From Paenibacillus sp. FSL H7-0331 (GTDB lineage: Bacteria > Bacillota > Bacilli > Paenibacillales > NBRC-103111), in contig NZ_MRTH01000010.1 in assembly GCF_001956045.1 (NCBI RefSeq), forward strand, positions 1 through 64,000: 64,000 nt of DNA, given 5' to 3'. Of the stretch, positions 4,747 to 45,960 are shown piece after piece (the stretch's first letter is position 1; each line of letters opens with the position of its first letter). Made by a program: the position numbers and the translations under genes. The notes under the pieces were generated by a model. That model did no database searches, was not told where the DNA came from, and saw only the letters and a list, made by a program, of their open reading frames with translations.

Positions 4747-4748
4747 CT

Positions 4749-6082: not shown

Positions 6083-6140
6083 TCCGACATAATATTATGA
6101 AATTATTTGAAATCATCCAATATTTACCTGCAATAGTTCG

Positions 6141-6170
6141 ATTATACAAGAATTTGGATTATTTATGCAA
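6141..6170 (-). promoter_or_regulatory. Sigma-A-like promoter for the SLH operon
   Basis: TTGCAT (6170-6165), an 18-base spacer and TATAAT (6146-6141) read on the minus strand. Predicted transcription begins near 6134, giving a leader of about 160 bases that contains the terminator-like hairpin before the SLH gene. Confidence 0.6.
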
Positions 6171-6193
6171 CAGTAAAATTTAGTTTCCATCCG

Positions 6194-6580
6194 TTACTTG
6201 GGATCCAATTCACCATAAGCCTGCTCCAGGCCATCCTCAGAGCCCTTGGCATGGCCTACTTTAAATCCTTCCTCGTACCCGCTGTTGAAGCCTTTGTTAT
6301 ACTCCTCACTATACGCTGCCTCTTTATGCGGGCCGGCTTTAGGGCTATTGACCTTGCGTCTGGAAGTACGGATTTTGCCCCTGCTCAGTCGCTTTCCAGA
6401 GCGGCCTGACACCGTTTTTTTTGCAGCGATTGCCTTTTTTGTAGAAGCAGTTTTTGGGGCAGAGACTTTTTTACCGATTGCTTTTTTTCGGCTGGAAACC
6501 GATTTCTTAGCACGGATGCGCTTGCTGATTGTGAGCGGTTTGCGAACGGATCGACGCTTTCTGGATGCAGTCACTCCCAT
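6194..6580 (-). CDS. Small basic protein with Gly-x3 repeat tail
   Basis: 128 residues from ATG, with GGGGAGG upstream. Residues 7-82 are a Lys/Arg/Ser/Ala tract with RKKAIGKK-like clusters and no hydrophobic core. Residues 97-117 form a tandem Gly-x3 helix (GFNSGYEEGFKVGHAKG). No catalytic domain exists. The same two-part layout occurs as the N-terminal extension of glycosyltransferases at 7962, 9474, 10663 and 11943, so this protein is the stand-alone form of that module. It is the last gene of the small-protein group, 58 bases after the gene at 6639. By analogy with basic coat proteins such as CotG it may be a structural spore component or a docking partner; that is inference. I know of no named family. 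Confidence 0.75.
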   Translation of the reverse strand: MGVTASRKRRSVRKPLTISKRIRAKKSVSSRKKAIGKKVSAPKTASTKKAIAAKKTVSGRSGKRLSRGKIRTSRRKVNSPKAGPHKEAAYSEEYNKGFNSGYEEGFKVGHAKGSEDGLEQAYGELDPK

Positions 6581-6638
6581 TGCCAGTGTTCCTCCCCTCT
6601 AGTTCAGACTGTTTCCCTTGATCTTCCTTGTTGCATCT

Positions 6639-6995
6639 CTATTCCTGTATACCTTGGCGTAATTCCGTTACATGTTCGTGGTTCAGCCATGGTTTGCCAT
6701 TATGTCCTCGAACTCGTACTCTGCGCCGAATTGTAATTCCGGTAATTTTGGCTGTAAGCTGTCGTTGGTAATTACTGATCTGCTGAATATTGTCAACAAC
6801 GCGCTGTACGGTCTCTTTCGGGTTCGTAGTAATGCTCTCAGAGCTGATATGGGCATCTGCAGATTTCTGGGTAAGGTCTGCAACAGCTTCTAGTATTTGG
6901 GTAAGCGCACGCTGACTTCTCGCAATGGAGGTTAGCATATGCATTTGTATGCGCTGTTCATGGGTGTAGGCTGGAGCGTTGGGCCGGTCCGTCAT
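6639..6995 (-). CDS. Small helical protein, locus-specific
   Basis: 118 residues, mostly predicted alpha-helix (residues 12-85), ending in a basic segment with RRRVRVRGHNG. Its ATG overlaps the stop of the gene at 6992 by four bases (ATGA), indicating translational coupling. The pattern of repeated helices with a mid-protein spacing resembles the two neighbouring small proteins at 6992 and 7398, suggesting a diverged family of coiled-coil bundle proteins. There is no signal peptide or membrane segment. I do not recognise the family. Position inside the spore glycosylation string suggests a structural spore-coat or exosporium role, which is inference. Confidence 0.65.
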   Translation of the reverse strand: MTDRPNAPAYTHEQRIQMHMLTSIARSQRALTQILEAVADLTQKSADAHISSESITTNPKETVQRVVDNIQQISNYQRQLTAKITGITIRRRVRVRGHNGKPWLNHEHVTELRQGIQE

Positions 6996-7348
6996 TTGAA
7001 GCTCCCACCCAGATTGAACAAGTCGCCCATACCACCGCCGCCAGAACCCGAGCCACCGCCCATCATATCTTCCTCTTCTTTTTGATTTAAAATAATGGTG
7101 AGATTTTTGGCCAGTGCACTTTCCATCTTCGTAAGTCCGTCAATCAGTTCGATTAATTGATCATGAACATCCATCGTTTCCTTCACTTGCTGAGCATGAT
7201 CCTCATAGGCAGAGAGGTTGAGACGATTACATATCCAATGACGCGACTTTACTGCTTCAATCGCCTTCGCTTCCAAAATTATGGCTATATTCAATTGGAA
7301 CTTGGCCGCTGCTGTCATCATCCGATTAAACGATTCCGGTCTGCTCAA
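6992..7348 (-). CDS. Small helical protein with Gly-rich tail
   Basis: 118 residues starting at TTG with AAGGAGG eight bases upstream. The first 90 residues are helical, including an ELIDGLTKMESALAKNLTII segment that parallels a matching segment (SLADLEDALAENLSSVM) in the protein at 7398. The last 25 residues are a Met/Gly/Ser run (MMGGGSGSGGGG) ending FNLGGSFK, a flexible low-complexity tail. Coupled to the downstream gene by an ATGA overlap. No transmembrane or catalytic signature. The likely role is structural in the spore surface layer; the function is unknown. Confidence 0.65.
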   Translation of the reverse strand: MSRPESFNRMMTAAAKFQLNIAIILEAKAIEAVKSRHWICNRLNLSAYEDHAQQVKETMDVHDQLIELIDGLTKMESALAKNLTIILNQKEEEDMMGGGSGSGGGGMGDLFNLGGSFK

Positions 7349-7397
7349 AGCACTACCTCCTTAACTGTACAATGTATACTACCAGATGGTCTGCGAT

Positions 7398-7688
7398 TTA
7401 TTCGTCAGCAGCCTGATCTCCCATTTCCTTCATCACACTGCTCAAATTTTCCGCCAAAGCATCTTCTAAATCGGCCAAGCTATTTAAATAGGCGGTAACA
7501 CTTTTTGTAATAAGAAGAGAGTGCTCCATCAGCGACTGAATTTCGCCAAGGTTCGGATCTACTGTTGAGACTTGATGATTAAGCGATGATAAATGAACAA
7601 CCACATGCCGCTTGGCCTCAATGATATTCGCCATTTGCTCCTGCGAGTTGGCCATATGATGAATCATCTCCGTGATTTGATTTTGCAC
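7398..7688 (-). CDS. Small helical protein, relative of 6992 product
   Basis: 96 residues from GTG, preceded by GGAGGGG. It is all helical by composition, with the segment SLADLEDALAENLSSVM near the acidic C-terminus that matches its neighbour at 6992. The N-terminal MIHHMANSQEQMANIIEAK resembles residues 18-38 of the protein at 6639. It is the first gene of the three-member small-protein set plus the basic Gly-x3 protein, all minus strand. A 273-base gap with dyad repeats separates it from the glycosyltransferase at 7962, so it may have its own promoter. Function unknown. Confidence 0.65.
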   Translation of the reverse strand: MQNQITEMIHHMANSQEQMANIIEAKRHVVVHLSSLNHQVSTVDPNLGEIQSLMEHSLLITKSVTAYLNSLADLEDALAENLSSVMKEMGDQAADE

Positions 7689-7715
7689 CCTTTACCCCTC
7701 CTCAGAGCTTCCGTA

Positions 7716-7802
7716 GGAAGCTGACCTCGTTAGCATTTACTTAGTACTTCCTTCGTAAGCTATCGCAGAACTTTTTCCAGGGAAGCTAACCTTGTTAGCA
7801 TT
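7716..7802. repeat. Two direct copies of a 22-base dyad element
   Basis: 7716-7737 and 7781-7802 match at 20 of 22 bases. Each contains an inverted repeat: GCTAAC-CTT-GTTAGC in the right copy and GCTGAC-CTC-GTTAGC in the left, 65 bases apart start to start. They lie just upstream of the gene starting at 7688. They look like operator sites, or hairpins in a leader. The rest of the 7689-7961 gap shows no gene. Confidence 0.5.
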
Positions 7803-7961
7803 GTTTAAAGCTATTCGCTGAAAAGCTAATTAAGAAAATCGGATATCATCAGAAGCTGCTTAGAGCTTTCTTGTAAAAAATGGACTTCTCACAATCGCAC
7901 GGTATCTCCTGTAGCCTATGCCGAAGTAATTAGGAAAGCCACTCTTTCCACTGCCCAAACC

Positions 7962-9410
7962 TTAAATATTGTCCGATCTCAGCGTAATTGGAGCAATAAT
8001 TGGCAGTCCTATCGGCATGCTGCTTAACTGAGAGTCATTCGTAGCTACCGGCTTTTGGCGATCGAATCCCCATACTGATATAGCAAGCTCGGATACAATC
8101 CTTCTCAGCCGCCCGCCCTCATGAAGGAACAATTGTCCATCCCGCTTTTGAAGCAGAGTCCCTTCCTGCACGCCTGAGCTTGGATCAGCCATTGCATGAG
8201 CACGATTACGAACCTCATCAGCATGTATCCCATTTCCGCGTATACATCCCCTCAGCTCCACATGCGATAGACGGGCTGGGGATACTGGCAAACTGTCCGT
8301 TCCCGTCAAAAGGCGACGTACGCCAGCATGCAGCTCATAGACAGTACCCCGGTTTCCCTGCACAACGGCATGATCCGGGTAGTAATGAATCATCGATCTC
8401 CGTTCTCCATTGGCAGGCAAGCCCTCCATTTCAGATATGAGCTGGTCCACACTACCCCATTTTTTAGCATAATAGTCAAGGTTGCGTCCATATACCTCTC
8501 CCATCTCCGAACCGAGCGCCTTCATGCTCACACTGCCGACATGATGAATAAAAGAATCGCCTGCGATCACAAGATCCAAACCAAGCAGCCGAACCCTGAG
8601 GCAAAAATCATCGTCCTCACAATTCCCGATCAGGAAGCCTTCATCAAAATAACCAAGCCGCTCGAACAAATCCCTTCGGAAAAGTAGACAAAAACCGGTG
8701 ATCCGAGCTGTTTTTTTCCAGCGAAGCGGATCGGGTCGATTAAATTCTGCAGCAAAACGGTGCATTTCCTCCAATGATGTATACGAGGTGGCAACCAGCT
8801 GCTCCCCGCTAATATAGTTCGTCATGGGACCTACTAGGCCGAATCGTTCATCACTATCGAGACAGCGATGCAGGTTAGTCAACCAGCCTTGTGTAACCAC
8901 TGTATCGTTATTAAGCAGCAGCAGCCTGGACCCTCTGGCCATTTTCATGCCCTGATTCACTCCACCGGCGAAGCCGATATTATCCGGATTGATCCGGTAA
9001 CGTAATTTACCTGCCATCGTCCGCAGATAATCTGCTGTACTGTCGGTTGAAGCGTTGTCGATCACAATGATTTCGTGAGGCTCAGGTGTAAACTGACTGA
9101 TGCTTTCGATGCACTGCCGCAGCAGCTCACCTTGATTAAAGGTCGGGATAATGATACTTGTGCCCTCGAACATAACGGTGAAAGAAGCTGCACCTGCAGT
9201 AACACCTGAAGGATAACCGATACCATAGCCTGCCTGATAACCGGCAAGATATCCCAACCTGTATCGAGCAGATACCTTGGAAATCTTCAATTTACGTCGC
9301 GATTTCCTGTTCATCAATGGCGCTTTCCGCCTGCGCGAAGAACGTTTGGCTTTCCTTATCGTAAGAACGGCTTTCCGCTTTCTTATAGCCTTTTTACGTC
9401 CCCTGGTCAT
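7962..9410 (-). CDS. GT2 glycosyltransferase with basic/Gly-x3 N-terminus
   Basis: 482 residues from ATG behind GGAAGGAGG. Residues 1-51 are Lys/Arg-rich. Residues 53-73 are the Gly-x3 run (GYLAGYQAGYGIGYPSG). A GT-A fold family 2 domain spans about 84-330: TSIIIPTFNQGE opening, VIDNASTD, the metal motif in LLLLNNDTVV, and the acceptor-side CEDDDFCLR with a following HH. The last 150 residues are unassigned and may be a second binding domain. This enzyme class transfers nucleotide-activated sugars such as rhamnose to growing glycans in the cytosol, here the mother cell. It ends the string of seven glycosyltransferase genes 15996-7962. Its donor cannot be read from sequence; the nearby dTDP-rhamnose genes make rhamnose a candidate. 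Confidence 0.85.
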   Translation of the reverse strand: MTRGRKKAIRKRKAVLTIRKAKRSSRRRKAPLMNRKSRRKLKISKVSARYRLGYLAGYQAGYGIGYPSGVTAGAASFTVMFEGTSIIIPTFNQGELLRQCIESISQFTPEPHEIIVIDNASTDSTADYLRTMAGKLRYRINPDNIGFAGGVNQGMKMARGSRLLLLNNDTVVTQGWLTNLHRCLDSDERFGLVGPMTNYISGEQLVATSYTSLEEMHRFAAEFNRPDPLRWKKTARITGFCLLFRRDLFERLGYFDEGFLIGNCEDDDFCLRVRLLGLDLVIAGDSFIHHVGSVSMKALGSEMGEVYGRNLDYYAKKWGSVDQLISEMEGLPANGERRSMIHYYPDHAVVQGNRGTVYELHAGVRRLLTGTDSLPVSPARLSHVELRGCIRGNGIHADEVRNRAHAMADPSSGVQEGTLLQKRDGQLFLHEGGRLRRIVSELAISVWGFDRQKPVATNDSQLSSMPIGLPIIAPITLRSDNI

Positions 9411-9473
9411 CCGGAGTATGACCTCCTTCCGGTTGGTATGATGTTGTATAGCTGGGCTCTACAGCCCGTTGTT

Positions 9474-10622
9474 TCAATACAAGGTTTCTTTGCGGGTTGC
9501 CAGCTCATCTGCCAAATGGCCAAAATCGATAGCGACCTTGCCCATCTCGGTTGCGATTCGCTGTGCTATCGTGACTGCTGACACCCCTGCTGATATAAGT
9601 GCAAGATCAAAGTCATGACGGGATACCTCCGCCATCACACGCGGGATATCCCTCACTCCATGTACCGGAGTAACAATACCGCTAACCGTCATACCTTGCT
9701 CCGTCAGGACAGTAGATAACGTTTCTGCCATATTGCCTACAAGCAGTATCCGACTTCCCCGTAACAGTCCTGCAAGTCGTCCTTCTTTAAAAATATAATA
9801 GTTGACAAGGGAGTGAGTCAGGCTCAAGTTATGGTAGTCGACACCATGTGCGCGCAGCGCTTGGAAAGCCATAGGCTGATAGGTGAAATTGCGAAGCTTC
9901 GGAATGCCAACCACAGTCGCCTGCTTCAAGGAGCTAATGAGTTGATCTCTTGCCGCCAAATCCGGGACATCGACTCCGGCATAGCTGAGAAACTTCCCTT
10001 CCTCCTTCACCTGATCAATGCTGAGTATGGTTTCCTGCGCCATCGTCAACACTTCGCCATCCCCAATGCGCACAAGGGAAAAGGGAGTTTTGGTATCCAG
10101 TGCATGACGCAGACGATGAGTAATTTGCTCTGCATTTTGCAAAATAAAAAATTGTGAATGCAGCTGCCCGATCCCCGCTTCAATAATATGCCTGATTGAT
10201 ATTTCAGGTAGAATCGCATCGAATGGCAGCAGCGAATCGACAATTCCGTCGCCTCCTGCATACAAGCCTTCCTTATGTCCATCACGGTGTCCTTGATTAT
10301 AGCTCTGCTCGTGGATCCGCTCGTGGATCAGGCTGTTGGAGTTCTTGGACTGGCCATCCTGATATCCGGACTGATAGCCCTTGGAATGCGATTCATCCAG
10401 CATCTGATTGACTATGGACGGACGGAACCGTTTGGTATTATCCGCTTTTCCTCTGCTGAGGGTTCTTCTCCCTGTTTTATTTAAATCTTTACTACGTTTT
10501 CCACCGGGCTTCCTCTTCAGCTTGAATGTCGACTTATGCGTGCCTCGGAGCTGCTTGCCATAAGAAGAGGTTTTACCCCCTGCAGGCTGCTTACTAACCT
10601 TTCGTTTTACCTTTATTTTCAT
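9474..10622 (-). CDS. GT-D fold glycosyltransferase with basic/Gly-x3 N-terminus
   Basis: 382 residues from ATG with GAGGTG eight bases upstream. Residues 1-68 are Lys/Arg/Ser-rich. Two Gly-x3 stretches follow: about 81-91 (KGYQSGYQDGQ) and 107-126 (SYNQGHRDGHKEGLYAGGDG). The enzymatic part, about 160-380, carries RIGDGE (185-190), the acidic signature of the GT-D (DUF1792-like) family, and a later Rossmann-like ILLVGNMAETLS segment and AIDFGHLADEL end. Known GT-D enzymes extend O-glycans on Ser-rich surface adhesins, so a role in glycosylating the collagen-like protein would fit. It lies 40 bases after the CgeB-like gene and 63 before the GT2 gene. Confidence 0.8.
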   Translation of the reverse strand: MKIKVKRKVSKQPAGGKTSSYGKQLRGTHKSTFKLKRKPGGKRSKDLNKTGRRTLSRGKADNTKRFRPSIVNQMLDESHSKGYQSGYQDGQSKNSNSLIHERIHEQSYNQGHRDGHKEGLYAGGDGIVDSLLPFDAILPEISIRHIIEAGIGQLHSQFFILQNAEQITHRLRHALDTKTPFSLVRIGDGEVLTMAQETILSIDQVKEEGKFLSYAGVDVPDLAARDQLISSLKQATVVGIPKLRNFTYQPMAFQALRAHGVDYHNLSLTHSLVNYYIFKEGRLAGLLRGSRILLVGNMAETLSTVLTEQGMTVSGIVTPVHGVRDIPRVMAEVSRHDFDLALISAGVSAVTIAQRIATEMGKVAIDFGHLADELATRKETLY

Positions 10623-10662
10623 AGTTTCAACACCTCATCATCGTCACATTGTGTGCAGCTGT

Positions 10663-11925
10663 TCATGACAGAAAGGCAGCATGCAGCAGCTCTTGAAGCC
10701 GTGAGCTATACGTGTGCTCCCGTACTGTTCGTGCCAGTCCGTTCAACGCTATTCGTCTGCGCTGCTGCTCATTCTGCAAGTAATACTCGATTTTATGGGC
10801 AAGCTCCTCCGGGGAAGCAAACGTCTCGATCTCCACACCCGGTGTATAAAATGTCTCCAGTCCTCCTCTGGCATCGACCAGTTGAAGGGTTCCTACAGCG
10901 CCAATTTCAAACGTGCGCGGATTGGGCGAGATTGCTGGTATCCTTCGCTGATTGGCATTGATCTCATCATCATCAAAAGCGCGATGACAGTTAATAACGA
11001 TCTTGGCACCCGCATAGCAATTGACTGTATCCTCACTTGTCAGCCAAGCGGCATCTCCACGAATAAACGGCTGCAGCAGCGAATAGCGCTCCAGCCGTTC
11101 CCACCACCTGCCGGCAATTAACGTTTTTTTCGATGCCAGCAGCGGAGCGATCGCATCAAATAAGGTGATGCGATTGCGATAGCCGCTTCCCAAAAAACAG
11201 ATATCATTATGGAACTCGGAAGCAACTCGCTGAGGCTTGTATATATGTGTGGATACCGCCAAAGGAATAAAGTGGACGTTTGGGCATCCAAGGCCGCGAT
11301 ACCATTCAACACAGTTCAACTCCTGCGTAAACACGATATCGTAGTTCAGAGCAATCGCTCCGGACAAATCGGCGTAGTAAGGATCATCCGTGAACCAGAC
11401 AGCCGTGCGATGGCCTCGCTGACGAAGCAGTTGAATGGTCTCGGCGGATACATAATCCATACCATTAAACACGAGTACGAGGTCAGGCTTCATAGTCTGA
11501 GCTATTAAGGCCACATCATCAAAAGGAGTAGCTACTCGCAGCTCAGAGACAAGCTCATGCAAGCTAAGCAGCAGTCCGCGTTCTATCGTTGCATAGGGAT
11601 CTCCCTGCCCGGAAACGACAAACATAAGCCGCCACTGTCTGGTTCGCAGAGGTTCCTTACGCTGATTGCTGCGTATGACCGTCTCACAGCTTCCCAAATG
11701 ATACCCCTCGGATATACCAAGCGGATAGGCTGTTTTCCAGCCCTGGCGAAAGCCCGCGCTCATTCTCTCTATAGGTTTCTTTATAATCCTTGAAGCCTTC
11801 GTGATCCTTGAACCTCTTCGTATCCTTGAATTTCTTAAGCTCCTTGAAGTCCTCGAAATTCCTGAGCCTACTCGCCTTCGTATTCTCCATGAATGTTTGC
11901 TTTTTCCCGCAGCCTTCATCGTCAT
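10663..11925 (-). CDS. CgeB-like glycosyltransferase with basic/Gly-x3 N-terminus
   Basis: 420 residues; the second in-frame ATG at 11919 has better spacing from GGGGGGAG than the first at 11925. Residues 1-50 are Arg/Ser-rich. Residues 58-80 form the Gly-x3 element (GFRQGWKTAYPLGISEGYHLG). The rest matches the CgeB (DUF3880 plus Glyco_trans_1_2) layout: KPDLVLVFNG, WFTDDPYY, DIVFTQELNCVEWYRGLG, HFIPLAV and a late GAKIVINCHR/FEIGAVG nucleotide-sugar region. In Bacillus subtilis CgeB shapes the outermost glycosylated spore layer. It is a tandem paralogue of the next gene upstream (11943-13133), 17 bases away. Confidence 0.85.
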   Translation of the reverse strand: MTMKAAGKSKHSWRIRRRVGSGISRTSRSLRNSRIRRGSRITKASRIIKKPIERMSAGFRQGWKTAYPLGISEGYHLGSCETVIRSNQRKEPLRTRQWRLMFVVSGQGDPYATIERGLLLSLHELVSELRVATPFDDVALIAQTMKPDLVLVFNGMDYVSAETIQLLRQRGHRTAVWFTDDPYYADLSGAIALNYDIVFTQELNCVEWYRGLGCPNVHFIPLAVSTHIYKPQRVASEFHNDICFLGSGYRNRITLFDAIAPLLASKKTLIAGRWWERLERYSLLQPFIRGDAAWLTSEDTVNCYAGAKIVINCHRAFDDDEINANQRRIPAISPNPRTFEIGAVGTLQLVDARGGLETFYTPGVEIETFASPEELAHKIEYYLQNEQQRRRIALNGLARTVREHTYSSRLQELLHAAFLS

Positions 11926-11942
11926 CTCCCCCCTTTCCGCTA

Positions 11943-13133
11943 TTATGGGAACAGTAGCTGCAGCATCGTCAGCAGCCTTTTGCTGTAAGTATGCTGCTCC
12001 ATCGTACGGCGCAGCCCACGAAACGCAATAGCCTCCCGCTCTTCATCATGCTCCAGATAATAGCTGGCTTTTTCAATAAAATCCTGCGGCGACTCATAGG
12101 TTGCAATCTCTCGTCCGGGTACGTATAGCTGCGGCAAATCCGTTCGTGAATCCGTTAGCTGAAAAGCACCGCTTGCACATATTTCGTACGTACGAGGATT
12201 GATTGAATGTCCAATAATGCCTCTACTATTAAAGTTAGCGGGGTCTTGATCCGAGCGGTGCAGATTGATGACGATCTTTGCTCCGTTATAAAAGCTCGCT
12301 GTTTCCTCAGGAGGCATCCAATTGATGTTCGGTTTGATTTTATCCCTGAGCAGCTCGTAATTTCCCAGACGGTCCCACCACCAGCCAGCGATCATCGTCT
12401 TTTTCTGAGCCAAAAAAGGGGCTACCTGTTCAATAAACGCGATACGATTCCAAAATCCGTTGGCTATAAAACAAATATCGGTATGATAGGTCATCTCTAC
12501 TCTCTTCGGCGCATACAAGTGCATCGCTGCAGCAAGCGGAAGGTAATGAACCTGCGCACAGCCGAGCTCTTTATACCAGGCAACACAATTCATCTCATGT
12601 GTAAACACGATGTCATAATGCGGGGCAAGTACAGCACTAATGTCTGAATGATACGGATCGTCTACCGTCCATACGACCGTTCGAATCCCCTGCGCCCGCA
12701 AAGCGTCAACCTGTGCAGAAGGGAATCGGGTTCCGTTTAAGGCGATAACCAGATCAGGGCGAAGCTGTGCTGCCATCGAAGCAGCATCCTCTCCCTCATG
12801 AAGTGGGGTGACCACCCTGACTAATTTTTGGAGGGCTGCAATAATCCCATCATCAAGGGAAACAAAACCTTCCTTCACATAAAAAACGTGTACATCCCAA
12901 TGAGCCTCCGGTTCCGGGGCTCCCTTACCCATAACTGCCTCGCAGCCTCCCAGATGAAACCCGTATTGGGTCCCATGTGTGTAGCCATCCCGTCGACCTA
13001 TTTCATAACCATTGGTTATAGGGTTGTGCGGAATGATCGATTGGATCTTCCGCCTGATTTTCCATCGGGTTTTCTTTCCGCTCTTCAATTTTGATTTGAG
13101 CGCTACTTTACGTACACTTCGCTTCGTTTTCAA
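11943..13133 (-). CDS. CgeB-like glycosyltransferase, tandem paralogue
   Basis: 396 residues from TTG 13133, whose bases overlap the stop of the gene at 13130 (TTGA); GGGGGCGA lies about nine bases upstream. Residues 1-31 are Lys/Arg-rich. Residues 42-63 give a regular five-step Gly-x3 run (GYEIGRRDGYTHG then GFHLG). The GT part mirrors its neighbour at 10663: PDLVIALNGT, WTVDDPYHSD, DIVFTHEMNCVAWYKELG, HYLPLAAAMHLY, GAKIVINLHR and PRTYEICASGAFQL. Clear similarity to the CgeB family supports a role in spore-surface glycan assembly. Two diverged tandem copies suggest different sugar linkages. Same operon as the GT2 genes on either side. Confidence 0.85.
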   Translation of the reverse strand: MKTKRSVRKVALKSKLKSGKKTRWKIRRKIQSIIPHNPITNGYEIGRRDGYTHGTQYGFHLGGCEAVMGKGAPEPEAHWDVHVFYVKEGFVSLDDGIIAALQKLVRVVTPLHEGEDAASMAAQLRPDLVIALNGTRFPSAQVDALRAQGIRTVVWTVDDPYHSDISAVLAPHYDIVFTHEMNCVAWYKELGCAQVHYLPLAAAMHLYAPKRVEMTYHTDICFIANGFWNRIAFIEQVAPFLAQKKTMIAGWWWDRLGNYELLRDKIKPNINWMPPEETASFYNGAKIVINLHRSDQDPANFNSRGIIGHSINPRTYEICASGAFQLTDSRTDLPQLYVPGREIATYESPQDFIEKASYYLEHDEEREAIAFRGLRRTMEQHTYSKRLLTMLQLLFP

Positions 13134-13879
13134 GCCGTATCGCCCCCTTCGATTCTCACGAAGCTTCGGGGATCAACACCCCACTTTTGCACAAATTTAT
13201 GCTCGTTTGGGTTATCCTGATTTAGGACCTGCTGGTTGTCTTCTTTATTATGACTGGCATTACCCAGATCAAATACAAACGTATCGCCGGCCATCAGTAA
13301 GCGATAACCACTCAAACGTGCCCTGTAACAGTAATCATCTTCAAAGTAACCTGGTGGAAACTGTTCGTCGAGAAAGCCAATACGCTCTACAAGCTCTCTT
13401 TTGATTAAAAAGCAAAATCCAGCCAGTCTTTCAACCGACTGCCATTTCCGTGAATCGGGTAAGTTGATCATTTCGGGCGAATGCTTAGGGGTGCTAATTG
13501 GCATATCCGCCATTTGCTTACTGCTTGTAGGACGGGTTACAGGGCCAACAATTCCGATCTCCTCACTGCTGTAAAGGCAGTTCAACAGGTTGGAGAGCCA
13601 ACGGGGAGAAGCCACAACATCATTGTTCAGCAGCAGCAGCGCATCTCCACTGCCGAGATGCAGTCCCAGATTGTGCGATCTCGTAAATCCACGACTGGAC
13701 GGAGTAGAGATGAAGCGTACCTGCTGCTGGCGGCAGTACTCGACGGAGCCGTCCGTGGAACCGCCGTCGACCACAATAATTTCGTAGGGGATATCAGTAT
13801 ATTTCTGAATGGAATGAATACATCGCCGCAGTAAAGGAAGTCCGTTTCTATTAGAGATAATCATACTCGTCATCTTCAT
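13130..13879 (-). CDS. GT2 family glycosyltransferase
   Basis: 249 residues from ATG with GGAGG nine bases upstream. It is a compact GT-A domain without the basic extension: SMIISNRNGLPLLRRCI opening, VVDGGSTDGSV, metal motif in LLLLNNDVVA, GIVGPVTRP, and FEDDYCYRARLSGYRLLMAGD near the acceptor side. This is the same subfamily as the enzymes at 7962 and 31714, often rhamnosyl- or similar transferases. It overlaps the downstream CgeB-like gene by four bases and follows the GT2 gene at 13898 by 18 bases, so it is an internal operon member. Lacking a tag of its own, it may be recruited through partners; that is inference. Confidence 0.85.
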   Translation of the reverse strand: MKMTSMIISNRNGLPLLRRCIHSIQKYTDIPYEIIVVDGGSTDGSVEYCRQQQVRFISTPSSRGFTRSHNLGLHLGSGDALLLLNNDVVASPRWLSNLLNCLYSSEEIGIVGPVTRPTSSKQMADMPISTPKHSPEMINLPDSRKWQSVERLAGFCFLIKRELVERIGFLDEQFPPGYFEDDYCYRARLSGYRLLMAGDTFVFDLGNASHNKEDNQQVLNQDNPNEHKFVQKWGVDPRSFVRIEGGDTA

Positions 13880-13897
13880 TCTTGTGAGCCTCCTTCC

Positions 13898-15028
13898 TTA
13901 CGCCAGATAAGATCTTTTTCGAATGAGATCGGTAAAGGACAGCCTTGCCCCGCCCAGTTTCTGTACGGCATGGAGCGCTTCAATATGATCCCCGATGATC
14001 ATATCGGACACAGAATTATGTGCACCTGCGTTATGTTGATTGACTCTGTTTGTTGTAATCACATCTACACTCCAAGGAGCGGTTACAACCAGTCCTTTGG
14101 CAAGTGCCAGCGCCTGGGCTTTAGGCGGCACCATCAACTGCTCTATGCCAATCGTATCCAGAGCTTTGCGCGATAATGCATGAGGCACCGCTGTTAGCGA
14201 ATCGGCACCCAGATCAGATCGACACAGCGAGACATTGATCAGCTTTTTCACCTTACTAACCCCATCCCAATGCGTATATGTCTTCAGGTAAGGCGAGATG
14301 TGATTCAGTGCCACGTCCGCCCCCCGCTCAATAGCAGCTATAAACGGAATCAATTGTTCAGCAGCAACGGTCATATCGCCATCCACATACAGAACAATAT
14401 CAGCACCCGTAAGCTTTGACCCAACAGCCCGACCCACATCATAGCCCAAAGGCTCGGAGTAATGGACAACTATCGCATTCGATCCTTTTCGAACCTTCTG
14501 GAAGGTCGAATCACCAGAGCCGTTCACGACGACTATGATTTCCTCCAATGGCATCCGTTGAAGCTGATGCAGCACGTTCATCACCGTTGCTTCCTCATTC
14601 ATTACGGAGATCACGACGCTCACTGTACGCTGGGTTGGGAGCAGCATCCAGTCTTTAACATTAATGCCTGACACAAGACTGTAACCAATAAGATAACCTT
14701 TTACCGCTTCCCAATAATGCTTCCATGCTCTATCGTTAAATGGTTTCTGCTTGATTCTCGTCACCCATAGGTCATTTAACAATTTTTTCTGGTTGCCGTC
14801 CTCAGGCTTTGGATCATGCAGCGCATCTTCTCGACCTGCTTGTTCGCCCCACGCTTTCCAATCTACAGGAGTACGAGGCAATGATCGCAGCGCAAATTTT
14901 AACGAGCTTTTTTTACTCCTCGGCCGGAGCGCTCCCAGTGGACGTCTTAACCGGCCATTCCGGCTCGAGACAGCTTTTCGCTTCATGCTGCTTTCAGCAA
15001 TAATACCCTTACTTTTGCGAAGCTTCAT
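13898..15028 (-). CDS. GT2 glycosyltransferase with basic N-terminus
   Basis: 376 residues using ATG 15028, seven bases after GAGGTGA; a GTG at 15037 overlapping the previous stop is the alternative. Residues 2-50 are Lys/Arg-rich, and a short GYLIGYSLVSG motif occurs near residue 110. The GT-A domain begins about 135: SVVISVMNEEATVMN, VVVNGSGD, GYDVGRAVGSKLTGADIVLY and the DXD-type VDGDM. Later VPPKAQALALAKGL and IIGDHIEAL recur in its neighbour at 15034, showing tandem duplication. Related to polyprenol-phosphate- or processive-type GT2 enzymes, but without membrane segments. Part of the glycosyltransferase operon. Confidence 0.82.
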   Translation of the reverse strand: MKLRKSKGIIAESSMKRKAVSSRNGRLRRPLGALRPRSKKSSLKFALRSLPRTPVDWKAWGEQAGREDALHDPKPEDGNQKKLLNDLWVTRIKQKPFNDRAWKHYWEAVKGYLIGYSLVSGINVKDWMLLPTQRTVSVVISVMNEEATVMNVLHQLQRMPLEEIIVVVNGSGDSTFQKVRKGSNAIVVHYSEPLGYDVGRAVGSKLTGADIVLYVDGDMTVAAEQLIPFIAAIERGADVALNHISPYLKTYTHWDGVSKVKKLINVSLCRSDLGADSLTAVPHALSRKALDTIGIEQLMVPPKAQALALAKGLVVTAPWSVDVITTNRVNQHNAGAHNSVSDMIIGDHIEALHAVQKLGGARLSFTDLIRKRSYLA

Positions 15029-15033
15029 ATTTA

Positions 15034-15996
15034 TCACCTCACCAGCTCTCTCTTTCTGCCCATATCTGTTTTACCGTAACGTTCCCCATGCTGTAGTGTC
15101 AGCCAATAAATGGCCTCCAGATGATCTCCTACTATTAAATCGCCAACGGGATCCAGCTTTCGACTTTTACGACGCAGCGGATTCAGCTTCAATACGTTAA
15201 TATAATGAACAGCCTCCATACGGAGCTTGGTCGCATGGGCTATCGCCTGTGATTTAGGTGGCACAGCCAGATTCTCTGCTTCAATCTCGTGTAATGCCTT
15301 TCTGCTAATGGCATGGGGTATCGTCGTCATCGAAGCCCCTTTCAAGTCAGCTCTGCCTAATATTGCATTCAAAGCATGCTTGGCAGCCACAACCTGATGG
15401 ATCTCTTTTCGGTTTGTTAGCCCGGAGTAGCTATTCAGCGCCACATCGACTCCATCACTCACAGCTTTCACAAAAGGCCGCAGCTCACGTGCCGAAATGA
15501 CCATATCCCCATCCAGAAACAGGATCACATCACCCTTAGCCACCCTCGCCCCGATGCTTCTGCCAACATCATGTCCCAACTGCTCCTTGAACTCGATTAC
15601 GATTGCACCAAGTCTTCTGGCCAACTGCTTCGTCCCATCCTTGGAGCCATTGCATACGACAATAACCTCGCAAGCCTTATGAACGGCATAAGCTTGTTGG
15701 ATAACGCGCGCCAATGTTCTTTTCTCATTGAATACCGGAATGATAATCGAAACCTTAGGCTTCGAGGCATTTCGGACAAGAGTTTGTCGCAGCGGCTTTT
15801 TCATGAATTCCCAACTCCTGTTCCAGGCTAGTAGTCTCTTCTCCTTCTCCATCTTATGTCTATCCGTCAGGTGAAACAGGGCATTCGTTCCATAGGCCGT
15901 AAAATCGGGCGAAAAGCCCGTCCAGAACCAAACATTGAAGAAGACTTTCCTTCCCTTCGCCATAGTCAAACGCCGTTTTTTACGAGTAGGGGTCAA
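15034..15996 (-). CDS. GT2 glycosyltransferase, paralogue of 13898 product
   Basis: 320 residues from the longest start, TTG 15996; ATG 15963 is an alternative, and neither has a clear ribosome binding site, unlike neighbours. A short basic start (PTRKKRRLTMAKGRK) replaces the long tract. The GT-A domain spans about 80-260: SIIIPVFNEKRTLARV, VVCNGSKDG, GHDVGRSIGARVAKGD and LDGDM, then VPPKSQAIAHATKL and IVGDHLEAI shared with the downstream paralogue. First gene of the glycosyltransferase string 15996-7962; its stop overlaps the next GTG. The divergent region with 16161 must hold its promoter, which I could not assign with confidence. Confidence 0.82.
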   Translation of the reverse strand: MTPTRKKRRLTMAKGRKVFFNVWFWTGFSPDFTAYGTNALFHLTDRHKMEKEKRLLAWNRSWEFMKKPLRQTLVRNASKPKVSIIIPVFNEKRTLARVIQQAYAVHKACEVIVVCNGSKDGTKQLARRLGAIVIEFKEQLGHDVGRSIGARVAKGDVILFLDGDMVISARELRPFVKAVSDGVDVALNSYSGLTNRKEIHQVVAAKHALNAILGRADLKGASMTTIPHAISRKALHEIEAENLAVPPKSQAIAHATKLRMEAVHYINVLKLNPLRRKSRKLDPVGDLIVGDHLEAIYWLTLQHGERYGKTDMGRKRELVR

Positions 15997-16160
15997 GGGT
16001 CTATAAGTCGTTCACTACGCCTGCATAGTATGGAGTCAAGTGCATATCCACTGCTGCCTTCTATCCGTCCCACAAGCTGGTTTGCGCATACAAAGCCTCG
16101 TTGAAAAGCAGGTATTCTATAAGAATGCCAACAAATGCTTCCCCGGAAAGGGTGACAATC

Positions 16161-17630
16161 ATGACTTTAGCCATTAAAGTAAGGAAGAAAAAGAGGTCTC
16201 TGGCAGCAGCCGATCGTTCCGGTAAAAAGCTTAAAAGAAAACTCAGACTTAGAAGAAAAAAACACAGAATCAAAACCCGATTAAAAGGGAAATTAAAATT
16301 AAGAAGGTTAAAACGAAAAGGCAAGCTGAAAGTTAGACGAAAAATCAGAATGAAACGTAAAAAAGGCCTCCGTAGGAGAAAATGGAAGCTTTCAAGAAAA
16401 CACAGAAGATTCAAGAAAAAAAGATTGAAAGCCAGACGAAAGAAACGTTCTCCTGTCCCTCCACAGGCAGCTGTTGTAGAAGCAGTCCCACCACCGGCTG
16501 CGCCTCCCTCTGTCGGACCAGGAAATGCACCCGGCATTAACTTGATTGGTTTTATCCGTGCTGAAATTGGGCTTGGAGAATCTGCGCGTCTGGCGGCTCG
16601 GGCGATTCAAACAACGGATGTCCCTTTTGGCATCCTCGACTTCCCCTTAAATGTCGCAAGCCGTATGGACGATACGACCTGGGCTCATAAAGAAACGCAG
16701 CATCCCGCTTACAATACAAACATCCTTCATATGAATGGCGATTCCCTTCTTCATGCACAAATGCATTTTGGTCAAGAACTTTTTCAAGGTCGCTACAATA
16801 TCGGATTTTGGCACTGGGAGCTGCCCGACTTCCCGGACGAAAACTTGCCAGGATTTGATCTGGTCAATGAGGTTTGGGTACCGACCAGCTTCGTACACGA
16901 ATCCGTATCCAAAAAATCTCCGGTACCTGTCGTCCGTATTCCACATGGAATCGAAGTCGAGGTTTCGCCGGACATTAACCGAGACACGTTTGGACTTCCG
17001 AGCAACCAGTTCCTCTTTTATATGATGTATGACGTTCAGAGCCATACAGCGAGAAAGAACCCTCAAGCTGTCATTGAAGCATTCAAGCTTGCTTTTGAAA
17101 TGAATAATCCGAATGTCGGCCTTGTCTTGAAAATCAATAATATGAGCTTCCAGCCTTCAGATCTGGAGGGACTGCGAGAGCTGGTCAGTGGACACAGCAA
17201 TATATATATCATCGATCGTATTCTATCACGTGTAGAGGTTAATTCCTTGCTTCAATGTACAGACTGCTTTGTTTCCCTGCACCGTTCGGAGGGCTTCGGA
17301 CTTGGTCTCGCGGAAGCGATGTATTTGGGGAAACCGGTCGTTGCAACGAACTGGTCAGGTAATACGGACTTTATGAACCCAACCAATTCCTGTCCCGTTA
17401 ATTATCAGCTCGTACAGGTAGGCCAGGATTGGGGACCTTATAAAGCCTATCAAACTTGGGCAGAGCCTGATGTGCATCATGCAGCACAGCTCATGCATAA
17501 TCTCGTTAACAATCCGGAATGGCGCCATTCGATAGCTGCTAATGGTCAACAGACCATCCGCAACGAGTATTCGCCACAAGTAGTAGGCCAAATGGTTAAA
17601 GAACGTCTGCGAAGTCTCGGATTAGTCTAG
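16161..17630 (+). CDS. GT4 glycosyltransferase with long Lys/Arg N-terminus
   Basis: 489 residues. ATG 16161 is chosen because GGAAAGGGTGA lies just upstream; a TTG at 16101 and an ATG at 16125 extend the frame but lack a site. Residues 6-96 are almost wholly Lys/Arg/Leu (over half basic). A Pro/Ala linker (about 98-120) follows, then a GT-B family 4 domain from about 125: IGFIRAEIGLGESARLA, NIGFWHWELPDFP, VWVPTSFV, and the donor-site SEGFGLGLAEAMYLGKPVVA. It transfers an activated sugar in the cytosol. The basic tract parallels the tags of the divergent operon but lacks the Gly-x3 run. Divergent from the gene at 15034. Confidence 0.83.
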   Translation: MTLAIKVRKKKRSLAAADRSGKKLKRKLRLRRKKHRIKTRLKGKLKLRRLKRKGKLKVRRKIRMKRKKGLRRRKWKLSRKHRRFKKKRLKARRKKRSPVPPQAAVVEAVPPPAAPPSVGPGNAPGINLIGFIRAEIGLGESARLAARAIQTTDVPFGILDFPLNVASRMDDTTWAHKETQHPAYNTNILHMNGDSLLHAQMHFGQELFQGRYNIGFWHWELPDFPDENLPGFDLVNEVWVPTSFVHESVSKKSPVPVVRIPHGIEVEVSPDINRDTFGLPSNQFLFYMMYDVQSHTARKNPQAVIEAFKLAFEMNNPNVGLVLKINNMSFQPSDLEGLRELVSGHSNIYIIDRILSRVEVNSLLQCTDCFVSLHRSEGFGLGLAEAMYLGKPVVATNWSGNTDFMNPTNSCPVNYQLVQVGQDWGPYKAYQTWAEPDVHHAAQLMHNLVNNPEWRHSIAANGQQTIRNEYSPQVVGQMVKERLRSLGLV

Positions 17631-17670
17631 CTGCTTGAAAATGTAGGAATACCCTCGGAGTAATGCCCGA

Positions 17671-17698: not shown

Positions 17699-17729
17699 TT
17701 ATATGTAAAGCGGGAGGAGGTGAATTACT

Positions 17730-18345: not shown

Positions 18346-20760
<2,415 letters not shown>

Positions 20761-34334: not shown

Positions 34335-35378
34335 TTATTGTGGATCTTGCTGTTGCTCTCGTATTCGCTCCATCTCCAGCAGAGCCTGTTTAATCGTTTG
34401 CTCATCCGATTTGGGACATACCAGCAATCCCTCTGGTGTAGAAACGATAATTAAATCGGCAACCCCTATAACTAACGTTTTTTGCTTATCTGAAAAAACA
34501 ATATTATCTCCTGCACGAAGCATATGAACCGATCCGCTGATCAGATTCCCCTGCTCATCACTTGGATATAGGCGAGTCAATGCCGTCCACGTCCCTACAT
34601 CATCCCAGCCAAACCGGACAGGGATACAGTAGATCAAATCGGCCTTCTCCAGAATCGCATAATCCACCGACACCTTGGGTAAAAGAGGATACAGCTGCTC
34701 CAGCTGTTCGTCGCTTAGGCTGATCAAGCGCGACATATCAGGCTCGAATTGTTCCAAATAATCGGCTATGGTTGATGGCCTCCAGGCAAAGATACCGCAG
34801 TTCCAGTACACATTCGCCATATGGACAAGCTTGGTCGCCTTCTCCAGGTCAGGCTTTTCGATAAACCGTTTAACTCTGTAAGCCCGGCCATCGTCCTGAG
34901 CCTTTCCTATTGCTTCTATATAGCCGTAGCCCGTCTCGGGACGTGTTGGGACAATGCCAAGAGTCACAATCACACCCTCTTGGCGCGCTGCCTCTACCGC
35001 CTGCTCAATCGCCTGAATGTAAGCTTCGTCATCTCCGATATACTGGTCGGAGGGAACCGTTACAAAAGGTTCATCCTGACCCTCTTGCAAAAAATGCCGT
35101 GCTATCAATGCCATGCAGGGTGCGGTGTCTCTCTGCTCCGGCTCGATAATAAGCTGCCGAGAGTCCAGTTCCTTTAGCTGCTCCAATACGAGCTGCGTAT
35201 ACTTTTGGACCGTAGCCACATAAATGTCGGCTGCCGGTATCCATCTAAGAAACCGCTGATAGGTTTCCTGAAGCATCGTATTGTTTGACGTCAGAGCTAG
35301 AAATTGCTTGGGTACTTCCTCTGTGCTTCTCGGCCAAAACCGGTTGCCCTTACCGCCGGCCATAATGACAACCTTCAA
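34335..35378 (-). CDS. manC: Mannose-1-phosphate guanylyltransferase
   Basis: 347 residues. TTG 35378 is chosen: it follows GAGGGGTGA at normal spacing and gives the family N-terminus (KVVIMAGGKGNRFWPRS); a GTG at 35387 overlapping the rmlD stop is the alternative. The pyrophosphorylase signature is clear, plus EPEQRDTAPCMALIARHFL, VTVPSDQYI, RFIEKPDLEKA, WNCGIFAWRPSTI, and SVDYAILEKAD with FGWDDVGTW. It lacks the C-terminal isomerase domain of bifunctional ManC/AlgA. It makes GDP-mannose from GTP and mannose-1-phosphate for the GMD-like and perosamine-synthase-like enzymes. Last gene of the rmlA-rmlB-rmlD-manC operon. Confidence 0.92.
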   Translation of the reverse strand: MKVVIMAGGKGNRFWPRSTEEVPKQFLALTSNNTMLQETYQRFLRWIPAADIYVATVQKYTQLVLEQLKELDSRQLIIEPEQRDTAPCMALIARHFLQEGQDEPFVTVPSDQYIGDDEAYIQAIEQAVEAARQEGVIVTLGIVPTRPETGYGYIEAIGKAQDDGRAYRVKRFIEKPDLEKATKLVHMANVYWNCGIFAWRPSTIADYLEQFEPDMSRLISLSDEQLEQLYPLLPKVSVDYAILEKADLIYCIPVRFGWDDVGTWTALTRLYPSDEQGNLISGSVHMLRAGDNIVFSDKQKTLVIGVADLIIVSTPEGLLVCPKSDEQTIKQALLEMERIREQQQDPQ

Positions 35379-35383
35379 TACAA

Positions 35384-36250
35384 TCACCCCTCATTTGACC
35401 TCACATACTGAATATCATTTTGAATACAATCCTGCAGCGCCAGCTTCCACTCACGCATGCGAGAGAAGCCGTTTTGACGGATCGCCAAATCGTCGAAAGC
35501 GGAATTATCAGGCCGAAGCGCAGGCAGCGAAAAAGTCGAGGCACTTACCGCTTCCAGACTGATATCTGTCCGATTCGCCGTCTGCAGGATAGCCTCGGCA
35601 AACTCGTAACGGCTGCAGCACCCTTGATTGGACACATGATACAAGCCGTACTTCTCTGTTTCCACCAATTCCCCAACAAATCGTGCCAAGTCTAACGTAT
35701 AGGTTGGGGAACCGGTCTGGTCATAAACCATCGTTAATCGGGACTGCCGATCAGCCATCGACAGTACCTTCGTCACAAAATTACTTCCGTGTTTGCCGTA
35801 CAGCCAAGAGGTACGTACTATAAAATAGCGTTGGCTGATCATTTCCACGAATTTTTCCCCATGGAGCTTGGAATTTCCATACACACTCAAAGGATTGGTC
35901 CGGTCCATTTCTGTATAGCTTCCTGTCTTGGTTCCATCGAATACATAATCCGTGCTGATATAAACAAGCTTGGCAGCACAATGATGTGCAGCCAATGCGA
36001 CATTACGTGTTCCTGTTGAATTGATAGCATAAGCTTTATCCAGCATCGTCTCAGCCAGATCTACCTGGGTAAACGCAGCAGCATGAATGATGACATCCGG
36101 ACAACACGCGGTTATTTGCTGCTTGACGGCCAGCTCATCCGTAACATCCAACTGTTCTCTGGAGAGCGGCAGAAGCTCATGGGCGGGTGACAAAGCGCGG
36201 ATCAAATCATGGCCCAGCTGCCCGCCAGCTCCTGTAATCACGATTTTCAC
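35384..36250 (-). CDS. rmlD: dTDP-4-dehydrorhamnose reductase
   Basis: 288 residues from GTG overlapping the rmlB stop. SDR motifs GAGGQLGHDL, IHAAAFTQVD, YISTDYVFDG, and the YGNSK Tyr/Lys pair; VRTSWLYGKHG is characteristic of RmlD. It reduces dTDP-4-dehydro-L-rhamnose to dTDP-L-rhamnose with NAD(P)H. Its substrate is made by RmlC, for which no gene is visible in the window. Equivalent to SpsK of the Bacillus subtilis spore polysaccharide operon. Between rmlB and manC with overlaps on both sides or near. Confidence 0.93.
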   Translation of the reverse strand: MKIVITGAGGQLGHDLIRALSPAHELLPLSREQLDVTDELAVKQQITACCPDVIIHAAAFTQVDLAETMLDKAYAINSTGTRNVALAAHHCAAKLVYISTDYVFDGTKTGSYTEMDRTNPLSVYGNSKLHGEKFVEMISQRYFIVRTSWLYGKHGSNFVTKVLSMADRQSRLTMVYDQTGSPTYTLDLARFVGELVETEKYGLYHVSNQGCCSRYEFAEAILQTANRTDISLEAVSASTFSLPALRPDNSAFDDLAIRQNGFSRMREWKLALQDCIQNDIQYVRSNEG

Positions 36251-45871: not shown

Positions 45872-45932
45872 CCTGCACTTCCTCCCGTTTTGGTAATGCT
45901 TCTTGTTGGGCACCGCATTTAGTAGTCTTTTG

Positions 45933-45960
45933 TAACATATGCATTCACCCAGATGGAAGT
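45933..45960 (-). promoter_or_regulatory. Sigma-K-like promoter
   Basis: On the minus strand AC (45960-45959), a 17-base spacer and CATATGTTA (45941-45933), a perfect CATAnnnTA. It drives the decapeptide-repeat gene with a leader of about 55 bases. Confidence 0.65.

What the first reader, a model, noticed from the sequence alone, without database searches (positions are those of the whole stretch)
6194..17630. A shared basic/Gly-x3 module tags unrelated glycosyltransferases
Seen: a GT2 (7962), a GT-D (9474), two CgeB-like enzymes (10663, 11943) and a stand-alone 128-residue protein (6194) carry a Lys/Arg/Ser-rich tract then a run of Gly every fourth residue with Tyr/Phe/His between. Two further enzymes (13898, 16161) keep the basic tract and have a weak or absent Gly-x3 run. 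The catalytic folds are not homologous, so the shared tag was added separately. Gly-x3 helices pack tightly together (as in FliH or Yae1) and basic tracts resemble CotG-like coat proteins. Inference: the tag docks glycosyltransferases onto the forming spore or onto each other, with the 6194 protein as hub. I know of no named system of this kind.
Basis: partly seen in the sequence, partly recalled or inferred. Interest (0 to 1): 0.85.

Follow-up and report, generated by a model that had tools for sequence, protein, structure and literature searches.

The report
Docking tag on spore sugar enzymes
In Paenibacillus bacteria, several unrelated sugar-attaching enzymes and one tiny neighbour protein carry the same glycine-every-fourth-residue helix, which probably joins them into one machine that coats the spore with sugars.

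Summary
A glycine-every-fourth-residue (Gx3) helix and a Lys/Arg-rich tract sit at the N-terminus of three glycosyltransferase folds (GT2/GT-A, GT-D, CgeB/GT-B) and in a small stand-alone protein. 116 of 120 listed GT-D and 118 of 120 listed CgeB homologues carry the run. 11 of 12 GT-D relatives inspected elsewhere do not. In 104 family genomes, 115 of 143 Gx3 hits lie within 60 kb of a WIAG-tail protein gene. In class-wide sampling no tagged glycosyltransferase was found beyond genomes of the order scan.

Two corrections: the 'tag' is two separable modules (CgeB mostly Gx3 only; GT2c and GT4 basic tract only), and the stand-alone protein recurs, usually beside a CgeB pair.

The Gx3 pattern resembles FliH and Yae1-Lto1, where glycine mutations in Lto1 reduce complex formation. 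Gx3 helices are acidic in the stand-alone protein and mostly basic in CgeB, also in loci picked by another marker. Best reading: docking helices that join the enzymes, with basic tracts holding the complex on a spore surface layer. Assembly and location are inferred, not shown.

The parts
6194..6580 (-). Stand-alone 128-residue protein: basic tract plus Gx3 run (candidate adaptor)
   Evidence: counterparts in L001-L005 and many other loci
6335..6565 (-). Basic tract of p6194; the N-terminal part has 37% Lys/Arg, sequence drifts but composition is kept
6230..6301 (-). Gx3 run of p6194; the last 45 codons differ from L001 by 15 synonymous and 2 non-synonymous codon changes
6639..6995 (-). Small neighbour u6639, function unknown
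6992..7348 (-). Small neighbour u6992, function unknown
7962..9410 (-). GT2a glycosyltransferase (GT-A fold by family) with basic tract and Gx3 run
9192..9263 (-). Gx3 run of GT2a (6 of 6 in register)
9474..10622 (-). GT-D fold glycosyltransferase with basic tract and split Gx3 run
10251..10388 (-). Split Gx3 run of GT-D; helical but mostly low confidence in the model
10663..11925 (-). CgeB1 glycosyltransferase with basic tract and Gx3 run (one Gly replaced by Ala)
11692..11763 (-). Gx3 run of CgeB1
11943..13133 (-). CgeB2 glycosyltransferase (GT-B fold) with basic tract and Gx3 run
12948..13019 (-). Gx3 run of CgeB2, inside a confident helix (residues 40-69) not covered by solved GT-B enzymes
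13130..13879 (-). GT2b glycosyltransferase, no tag (internal control)
13898..15037 (-). GT2c glycosyltransferase: basic tract only
15034..15996 (-). GT2d glycosyltransferase, no Gx3 run
16161..17630 (+). GT4 glycosyltransferase: long basic tract, no Gx3 run
16003..16031 (+). Sigma-E-like promoter match before GT4, kept in L001 and L002
   Evidence: consensus recalled, function not tested
18346..20736 (-). Collagen-like protein with BclB-type exosporium C-terminal domain (candidate acceptor)
34335..37988 (-). ManC- and RmlD/B/A-like sugar-nucleotide genes (candidate donor supply)
   Evidence: gene names are my reading of the sequences (recalled), no family search was run on them
41723..45913 (-). 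EKL-repeat giant protein with WIAG-tail domain (candidate acceptor or surface fibre)
45933..45960 (-). Sigma-K-like promoter match before the WIAG-tail gene
   Evidence: consensus recalled

Best explanation
The cluster encodes a spore-surface glycosylation machine whose enzymes are joined by a common docking helix. SHOWN: the Gx3 run sits on three unrelated glycosyltransferase folds and on a small stand-alone protein, is conserved at protein level, and is largely restricted to the cluster's copies. It has a FliH-like make-up (aromatic residue right after most Gly). In CgeB it is predicted as a helix that solved GT-B enzymes do not cover. INFERRED: Gx3 helices of different proteins pair through close Gly-face packing, as the deca-GX3 motifs of Yae1 and Lto1 are thought to do. 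The acidic helix of the small adaptor pairs preferentially with the mostly basic helices of the CgeB enzymes. The disordered basic tracts of the adaptor, GT-D, GT2a, GT2c and GT4 then hold the assembly on an acidic surface of the forming spore's outer layer. There it builds a glycan (probably rhamnose-containing) on collagen-like BclB-type and WIAG-tail proteins.
For: Conservation: GT-D 116 of 120 listed, CgeB 118 of 120 listed with 3 or more in-register Gly, 113 with 4 or more. Class counts against shuffles and untagged neighbours. No aromatic Gx3 run in 12 of 12 GT-D relatives inspected elsewhere; one, L238, has three in-register Gly without aromatics. Locus confinement: 22 of 22 hits at E<=1e-3 in one locus per genome for 5 genomes; 115 of 143 hits within 60 kb of a WIAG-tail gene. 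Among 11 class-scan genomes not in the order scan, the best hit was inspected in 10 and none is a glycosyltransferase. Small protein with enzymes: 24 of 25. WIAG-picked loci in genomes without a profile hit: 23 of 24 CgeB have 3 or more in-register Gly. Purifying selection on Gx3. Aromatic x1 residues 60-79%; FliH Tyr/Phe over 45% (PMC2674601, passages). Lto1 Gly mutations reduce complex formation with Yae1 (PMC4523923, passages). Charge contrast. Helix and folds. Spore link.
Against: No interaction, localisation or glycan data. p6194 itself finds no homologue at E<=1e-3 by word search; its kinship rests on position, on L001, L002 and L112, and on weak matches in L082, L084 and L136. The high confidence and invariant last two glycines of the CgeB helix could mean packing on its own enzyme. 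The GT-D tag model is mostly low confidence. The charge contrast is not corrected for relatedness; 15 of 91 CgeB helices are acidic, and in 4 of the 10 check loci one CgeB helix is acidic and in one the small protein's is basic. L112 has the small protein without a tagged enzyme in 18 kb. 36 of 104 family genomes have no profile hit at E<=0.01, and 8 of 19 WIAG-picked stretches hold no CgeB. The collagen-like neighbour also exceeds the cut-off of a cell-wall adhesin model, SclB, 438 bits against 325, probably through its collagen repeat. Promoter matches cover few genes.
Confidence: 0.55

Rival explanations
1. The Gx3 helix only makes homodimers of each enzyme, as in FliH; there is no mixed complex and no hub.
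For: FliH forms homodimers (PMC2674601 passages). Each enzyme class keeps its own composition around the Gly.
Against: A stand-alone protein consisting of little but the two modules is kept beside the enzymes, which homodimerisation alone does not explain. Helix charges differ between partners in the direction expected for mixed pairing.
Confidence: 0.2
2. The basic tract is the working part: a CotG-like, possibly phosphorylated, coat-incorporation signal that makes the enzymes structural parts of the spore; the Gx3 run is a spacer helix.
For: The basic tract of p6194 keeps composition, not sequence. CotG and CotB have Ser/Lys-rich repeats and are phosphorylated by CotH (PMC7821199, abstract passage). 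CotH homologues exceed the cut-off in 4 of 5 genomes. CgeB 10663 has a short repeat in its tract.
Against: CgeB mostly lacks the basic tract but keeps the Gx3 run. The Gx3 codons are the best conserved part of p6194. No tandem repeat in p6194. cotH lies on other contigs.
Confidence: 0.12
3. In CgeB the Gx3 helix packs on its own catalytic domain and helps catalysis or acceptor binding; the likeness between enzymes is convergent.
For: Confident helix in the model (pLDDT 87-97); the last two Gly are invariant in an alignment of 84 sequences.
Against: Solved GT-B relatives align only from about residue 68-81 on. Three of five CgeB-type copies inspected elsewhere have no run of 4; the other two score 4 in uncertain upstream extensions. 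The same pattern sits on three folds and on a protein with no enzyme.
Confidence: 0.08
4. Chance or composition artefact of Gly- and Lys-rich coding sequence.
For: Single window proteins can fail a shuffle test: GT-D 15.5%, CgeB 10663 526 of 5,000 by the stricter measure.
Against: Class-wide shuffle tests, untagged neighbours and synonymous-biased change.
Confidence: 0.02

Closest known systems
Yae1-Lto1 deca-GX3 adaptor complex (eukaryotes)
   Same: Soluble Gly-every-fourth motifs; two different GX3 proteins form an adaptor complex, and glycine mutations in Lto1 reduce it (PMC4523923, passages). One of three stand-alone proteins scanned (L084, 30.4 bits) is over the Pfam Yae1_N cut-off of 27.5.
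   Different: p6194 (15.3) and L016 (22.9) are under the cut-off. The neighbours here are glycosyltransferases, not Rli1 or the CIA machinery. The run has about 6 repeats plus a basic tract.
FliH/YscL glycine repeats (flagellar and type III export)
   Same: Soluble GxxxG runs with Tyr/Phe at x1; dimerising protein (PMC2674601, passages).
   Different: Matches to FliH models cover little more than the run, at 23 bits or less against cut-offs of 180-293. Not in a flagellar gene cluster.
CotG/CotB (ExsB-like) spore-coat proteins
   Same: Lys/Arg/Ser-rich tracts; the window's tracts lie in a cluster with a spore-surface domain.
   Different: No tandem repeat in p6194 (a short one in CgeB 10663) and no cotH on the cluster's contigs in the genomes searched.
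CgeB and other crust glycosyltransferases of Bacillus subtilis
   Same: CgeB homologues; the B. subtilis crust contains rhamnose and CgeB is listed among its glycosyltransferases (PMC10502511, passages).
   Different: Five CgeB-type proteins inspected elsewhere show no clear aromatic Gx3 run. The B. subtilis protein itself was not examined.
GT-D (DUF1792) glycosyltransferases
   Same: Same catalytic domain: NF040628 264 bits against 75, fold match 4pfx.
   Different: The cluster's copies carry an N-terminal basic plus Gx3 extension.

Membership tests
Yae1_N (PF09811) | Score at or above the Pfam gathering cut-off (27.5 bits) | tested here: not met
   p6194 15.3 bits. Others scanned: L016 22.9, L089 377-residue enzyme 16.9, L084 stand-alone 30.4, which alone meets it.
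Yae1_N (PF09811) | Adaptor for Rli1 iron-sulfur insertion with an Lto1 partner | not testable with these tools
   Function defined in eukaryotes.
FliH | Whole-protein match over the cut-off of a FliH model, C-terminal domain included | tested here: not met
   Best NF004270 23.2 bits against a cut-off of 180, residues 87-120 only.
CotG-like coat proteins | Tandem Ser/Lys-rich repeats | tested here: inconclusive
   Tandem Repeats Finder on the DNA, 6100-17700: two rows, a 12-bp unit x1.9 in GT-D and an 18-bp unit x2.5 in the basic tract of CgeB 10663; none in p6194. Diverged protein-level repeats were not tested.
CotG-like coat proteins | Gene neighbour of the kinase gene cotH | tested here: not met
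   CotH over cut-off in 4 of 5 genomes, on other contigs than the cluster. Phosphorylation was not testable.
CgeB / Glyco_trans_1_2 (PF13524) | Pfam match over cut-off and GT-B fold | tested here: met
GT-D glycosyltransferase | Match over the NF040628/PF22882 cut-off and DUF1792 fold | tested here: met
   264 bits against 75; 272 bits against 27; 4pfx E 6.6e-6.
Exosporium BclB-type protein (neighbour 18346) | TIGR03721 over cut-off plus collagen repeat | tested here: met
   143.1 bits against 93.15; PF01391 301 bits. The SclB adhesin model is also over its cut-off (438 against 325).
Heteromeric GX3 docking system (proposed) | Physical mixed complex through Gx3 helices | not tested
   No complex prediction or experiment was available.

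The most novel reading that the evidence does not exclude
Spores of Paenibacillus and its order are glycosylated by a self-assembling enzyme array that uses a portable docking helix. Charge-matched Gx3 helices decide which glycosyltransferases of unrelated folds sit next to the adaptor and to each other, so the glycan's build order is written in the tags, and the basic tracts park the array on the growing spore surface. It would be a docking-domain system of its own kind, a bacterial GX3 counterpart of cohesin-dockerin or polyketide docking domains.
Probability: 0.3. Interest if true: 0.9.

Novelty: new variant of a known kind. Interest (0 to 1): 0.76.

Why it matters
How spore-surface glycosyltransferases work together, and where, is, as far as I know, an open question. 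This gives a concrete answer that can be tested by mutating single glycines. The 2009 FliH study called its long Gly repeat extremely rare in other proteins (PMC2674601, passages); here is a second large set of proteins with it, spread over an order. If the helices do pair across different proteins, they are a small genetic tag for co-assembling unrelated enzymes, usable in engineering. It also suggests functions for many proteins now called hypothetical, and names a WIAG-tail protein and a BclB-type collagen protein as possible targets.

Tried and rejected
The stand-alone protein as a word-search query gave nothing at E<=1e-3 (15 candidates); position and the profile search were used instead. 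Dityrosine cross-linking as the role of the tyrosines: disfavoured because Phe outnumbers Tyr at x1 in the stand-alone proteins (50% against 29%). A Gx3 relative of known structure: no significant hit (best E 0.45, a lipase). GT-D by sequence in the PDB: none at E<=0.1; the fold search then gave 4pfx. Sporulation promoters: GT4 (sigma-E 3 of 8, expected 0.1), the WIAG-tail gene (sigma-K strict 3 of 14, expected 0.1) and GT2d (sigma-K strict 3 of 33, expected 0.2) stood out. The rest did not or barely did: CgeB2 sigma-K strict 1 of 72 and sigma-E 2 of 72, GT2a sigma-K strict 1 of 33, and no strict sigma-K or sigma-E match for CgeB1 (29), u6992 (18), RmlA (41) and SDR (7). WIAG-tail presence as a co-occurrence test: uninformative, since 104 of 104 genomes have it. 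Literature: no paper on this system was found (open-access PMC library only). Five papers were seen as passages, PMC11952670 among them without use here; the others as search listings only.
Full report
WHAT WAS CLAIMED.

CHECK IN THE WINDOW. The open frames are where stated. In the first 130 residues, in-register glycines (six positions, spacing four) number 6 (p6194), 6 (GT2 7962), 6 (CgeB 11943), 5 (CgeB 10663) and 4 (GT-D 9474). Shuffling the same residues reaches these in 0, 0, 0.02, 0.12 and 15.5% of 5,000 trials. Counting only unbroken runs over the whole protein, shuffles reach the observed run in 1, 2, 0, 526 and 104 of 5,000. The other window proteins scanned have 3 or fewer in-register glycines. 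13898 and 16161 have the basic tract only. The window is close to Paenibacillus sp. FSL H8-0034 (98% identity in GT-D) and P. periandrae (94%); its own genome is not held.

CONSERVATION OF THE TAG. GT-D 9474 has 289 relatives in the protein collection, 120 of them listed; 116 of these 120 have at least two in-register Gly steps in the part before the catalytic domain. CgeB 11943 has 394 relatives, 120 listed; 118 of 120 have three or more in-register Gly starting in the first 130 residues and 113 have four or more. One of the 118 (P0124, a shorter protein) reaches three inside its catalytic part. One of the two misses, P0125, matches the P. thalictri locus, where the open frame in L003 starts further upstream and carries the run. 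Five named Paenibacillus loci (L001-L005) keep tagged CgeB, GT-D and GT2 genes side by side; L005 shows one CgeB-type gene.

A CLUSTER, NOT A GENOME-WIDE FEATURE. A 24-position profile of 16 Gx3 runs (A1) was searched against whole genomes. In the five genomes of L001-L005 the 22 hits at E<=1e-3 all lie in one locus per genome. The profile was built from some of these runs, so the new information is the absence elsewhere and the short open frames it found in L003, L004 and near L005, which were not in the profile. At E<=0.01 it hits 11 of 13 genomes of the genus and 68 of 104 of the family. At E<=1e-3 it hits 147 of 296 genomes of the order and 31 of 398 of the class. Of the 31, 20 carry handles from the order scan. 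The group of the other 11 is not told. Their best hit was inspected in ten: three FliH, two Gln/Asn-rich proteins, three recombination-nuclease-like proteins, a membrane-like protein and an unknown (names recalled); none is a glycosyltransferase. For G593 no locus was fetched, and further hits in G462 and G472 were not read.

TWO MODULES, NOT ONE. I annotated 65 loci by similarity to the window's proteins. Gx3 (4 or more of 6): CgeB1 28 of 29, CgeB2 63 of 75, GT2a 31 of 34, GT-D 21 of 32, GT2c 6 of 35 (2.1 expected), GT2b 0 of 34, GT2d 0 of 34, and 5 of 14 u6992, a protein with a Gly-rich tail. Basic tract (11 or more Lys/Arg in 30): GT-D 28 of 32, GT2a 20 of 34, GT2c 32 of 35, GT4 11 of 12, GT2d 10 of 34, CgeB 14 of 104. 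The stand-alone protein has both, but that class was defined by having both, so its count is not evidence. The 'shared module' is therefore a Gx3 helix and a basic tract that can occur separately.

THE STAND-ALONE PROTEIN RECURS. It lies in window-like position in L001 and L002, as 80-81 residue proteins in L004 and L003, and as two proteins of 93 and 99 residues near and in L005. I sampled 25 loci where the profile's only hit was this short frame (8, 17). 24 have a CgeB, GT2a or GT-D relative in the fetched stretch and 21 have a Gx3-bearing CgeB, within 0.63 kb in 19 of them. The weak cases: L127 (8.3-kb stretch, none), L125 and L130 (GT2a only), and L112 (only a distant GT-D relative without a run). 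Two small neighbours, u6992 and u6639, are often next to it. Between the window and L001 the last 45 codons show 28 same, 15 synonymous and 2 non-synonymous codon changes; the part before is only 43 of 84 identical but keeps 34-37% Lys/Arg. That looks like selection on a helix sequence and on a bulk charge, respectively.

AN INDEPENDENT SAMPLE. The WIAG-tail protein (NF012201) is present in 104 of 104 family genomes, once in 99 of them, and in 0 of 14 control genomes. Of 143 Gx3 hits, 120 lie on its contig and 115 within 60 kb; in the 59 genomes with a hit on that contig the median nearest distance is 10.8 kb. I then fetched stretches beside this gene in 20 of the 36 genomes that had no profile hit; 19 were long enough. 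Eleven hold CgeB genes, and 23 of their 24 CgeB proteins have three or more in-register Gly; a small basic protein with a weaker Gly/Ala-x3 run lies in the stretch in 10 of these 11. The other 8 stretches hold no CgeB. So part of the profile's misses are weak tags, not absence.

UNTAGGED RELATIVES. Twelve GT-D relatives elsewhere were inspected (three are second copies in genomes of the order scan). Eleven are bare domains of 236-274 residues without a run; the twelfth, L238 (473 residues), has three in-register Gly without aromatics. Five CgeB-like proteins elsewhere (L187, L191, L213-L215) show no clear aromatic run; L213 and L214 score 4 in uncertain upstream extensions and L191 scores 3 without aromatics.

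MECHANISM. The residue after each Gly is Tyr or Phe in 69% (GT-D), 69% (GT2a) and 79% (stand-alone) of steps, and Tyr, Trp or Phe in 60% for CgeB. In FliH, Tyr/Phe make up over 45%, and its authors argue for Gly-face helix pairing with aromatic-Gly contacts (PMC2674601, passages). In yeast, Gly changes in the middle and end of the deca-GX3 motif of Lto1 reduced binding to Yae1, and the pair acts as an adaptor (PMC4523923, passages). Mean helix net charge differs by class: stand-alone -2.6, GT-D -1.8, GT2a -0.8, CgeB1 +1.4 (21 of 28 positive), CgeB2 +2.0 (45 of 63 positive). Paired differences to the stand-alone helix are +4.0 (CgeB1, 14 loci), +5.2 (CgeB2, 25 loci), +1.6 (GT-D, 10 loci) and +2.0 (GT2a, 17 loci). 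In the independent WIAG-picked set the mean CgeB helix is more basic than the small protein's in 10 of 10 loci (+2.8 against -2.75), though one CgeB is acidic in four of them and the small protein is basic in one. The loci are related, so the P values should not be taken at face value. The pattern is what mixed pairing between the small protein and CgeB would give.

SPORE LINK. The collagen-like neighbour ends in a BclB-related exosporium domain (TIGR03721, 143 bits against 93.15); its collagen part also exceeds the SclB adhesin model's cut-off. CgeB is listed among the glycosyltransferases of the B. subtilis crust, which contains rhamnose (PMC10502511, passages). Mother-cell promoter-like sites precede GT4 (sigma-E-like; identical in L002, and in L001 the two elements are kept with a partly diverged spacer) and the WIAG-tail gene (sigma-K-like; the same core in L092, L093 and L111). 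The consensus sequences are recalled. This is supportive, not proof of sporulation expression.

VERDICT. A real feature spread over an order and not described in the literature searches named. Docking through Gx3 helices is the best reading; the adaptor role, the complex and the spore location remain to be shown.

Noticed in passing
41723-45913 (window): EKL-repeat WIAG-tail giant protein: family domain in 104 of 104 family genomes (single in 99), 0 of 14 control genomes; itself has a basic N-terminus (12 Lys/Arg in 30). Function unknown.
   Followed up: partly
6639-7348 (window): Two small proteins (u6639, u6992) with no family match over a cut-off, repeatedly next to the stand-alone tag protein in other genomes.
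   Followed up: partly
L089:4346-5479; L005:12644-13792; L028:418-1689: Further Gx3-tagged proteins of 377-423 residues without a close match in the window; the L028 one has weak GT4 matches.
   Followed up: partly
L033 (G003 contig 79): A second small protein plus tagged GT2-like pair away from the main cluster.
   Followed up: no
L140 (G481): 116-residue protein with a long repeated Gly-x3 run rich in aromatic residues, in a genome not in the order scan; unknown.
   Followed up: no
2074-5975 (window): A large secreted-looking protein and an SLH-like protein kept as a pair in L112 and L114.
   Followed up: no
17730-18104 (window): Small protein without family match between GT4 and the collagen-like gene, kept in L001 and L002.
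   Followed up: no
L112 (G006): Genome with the stand-alone protein but no tagged enzyme in the fetched 18 kb; a possible loss case.
   Followed up: partly
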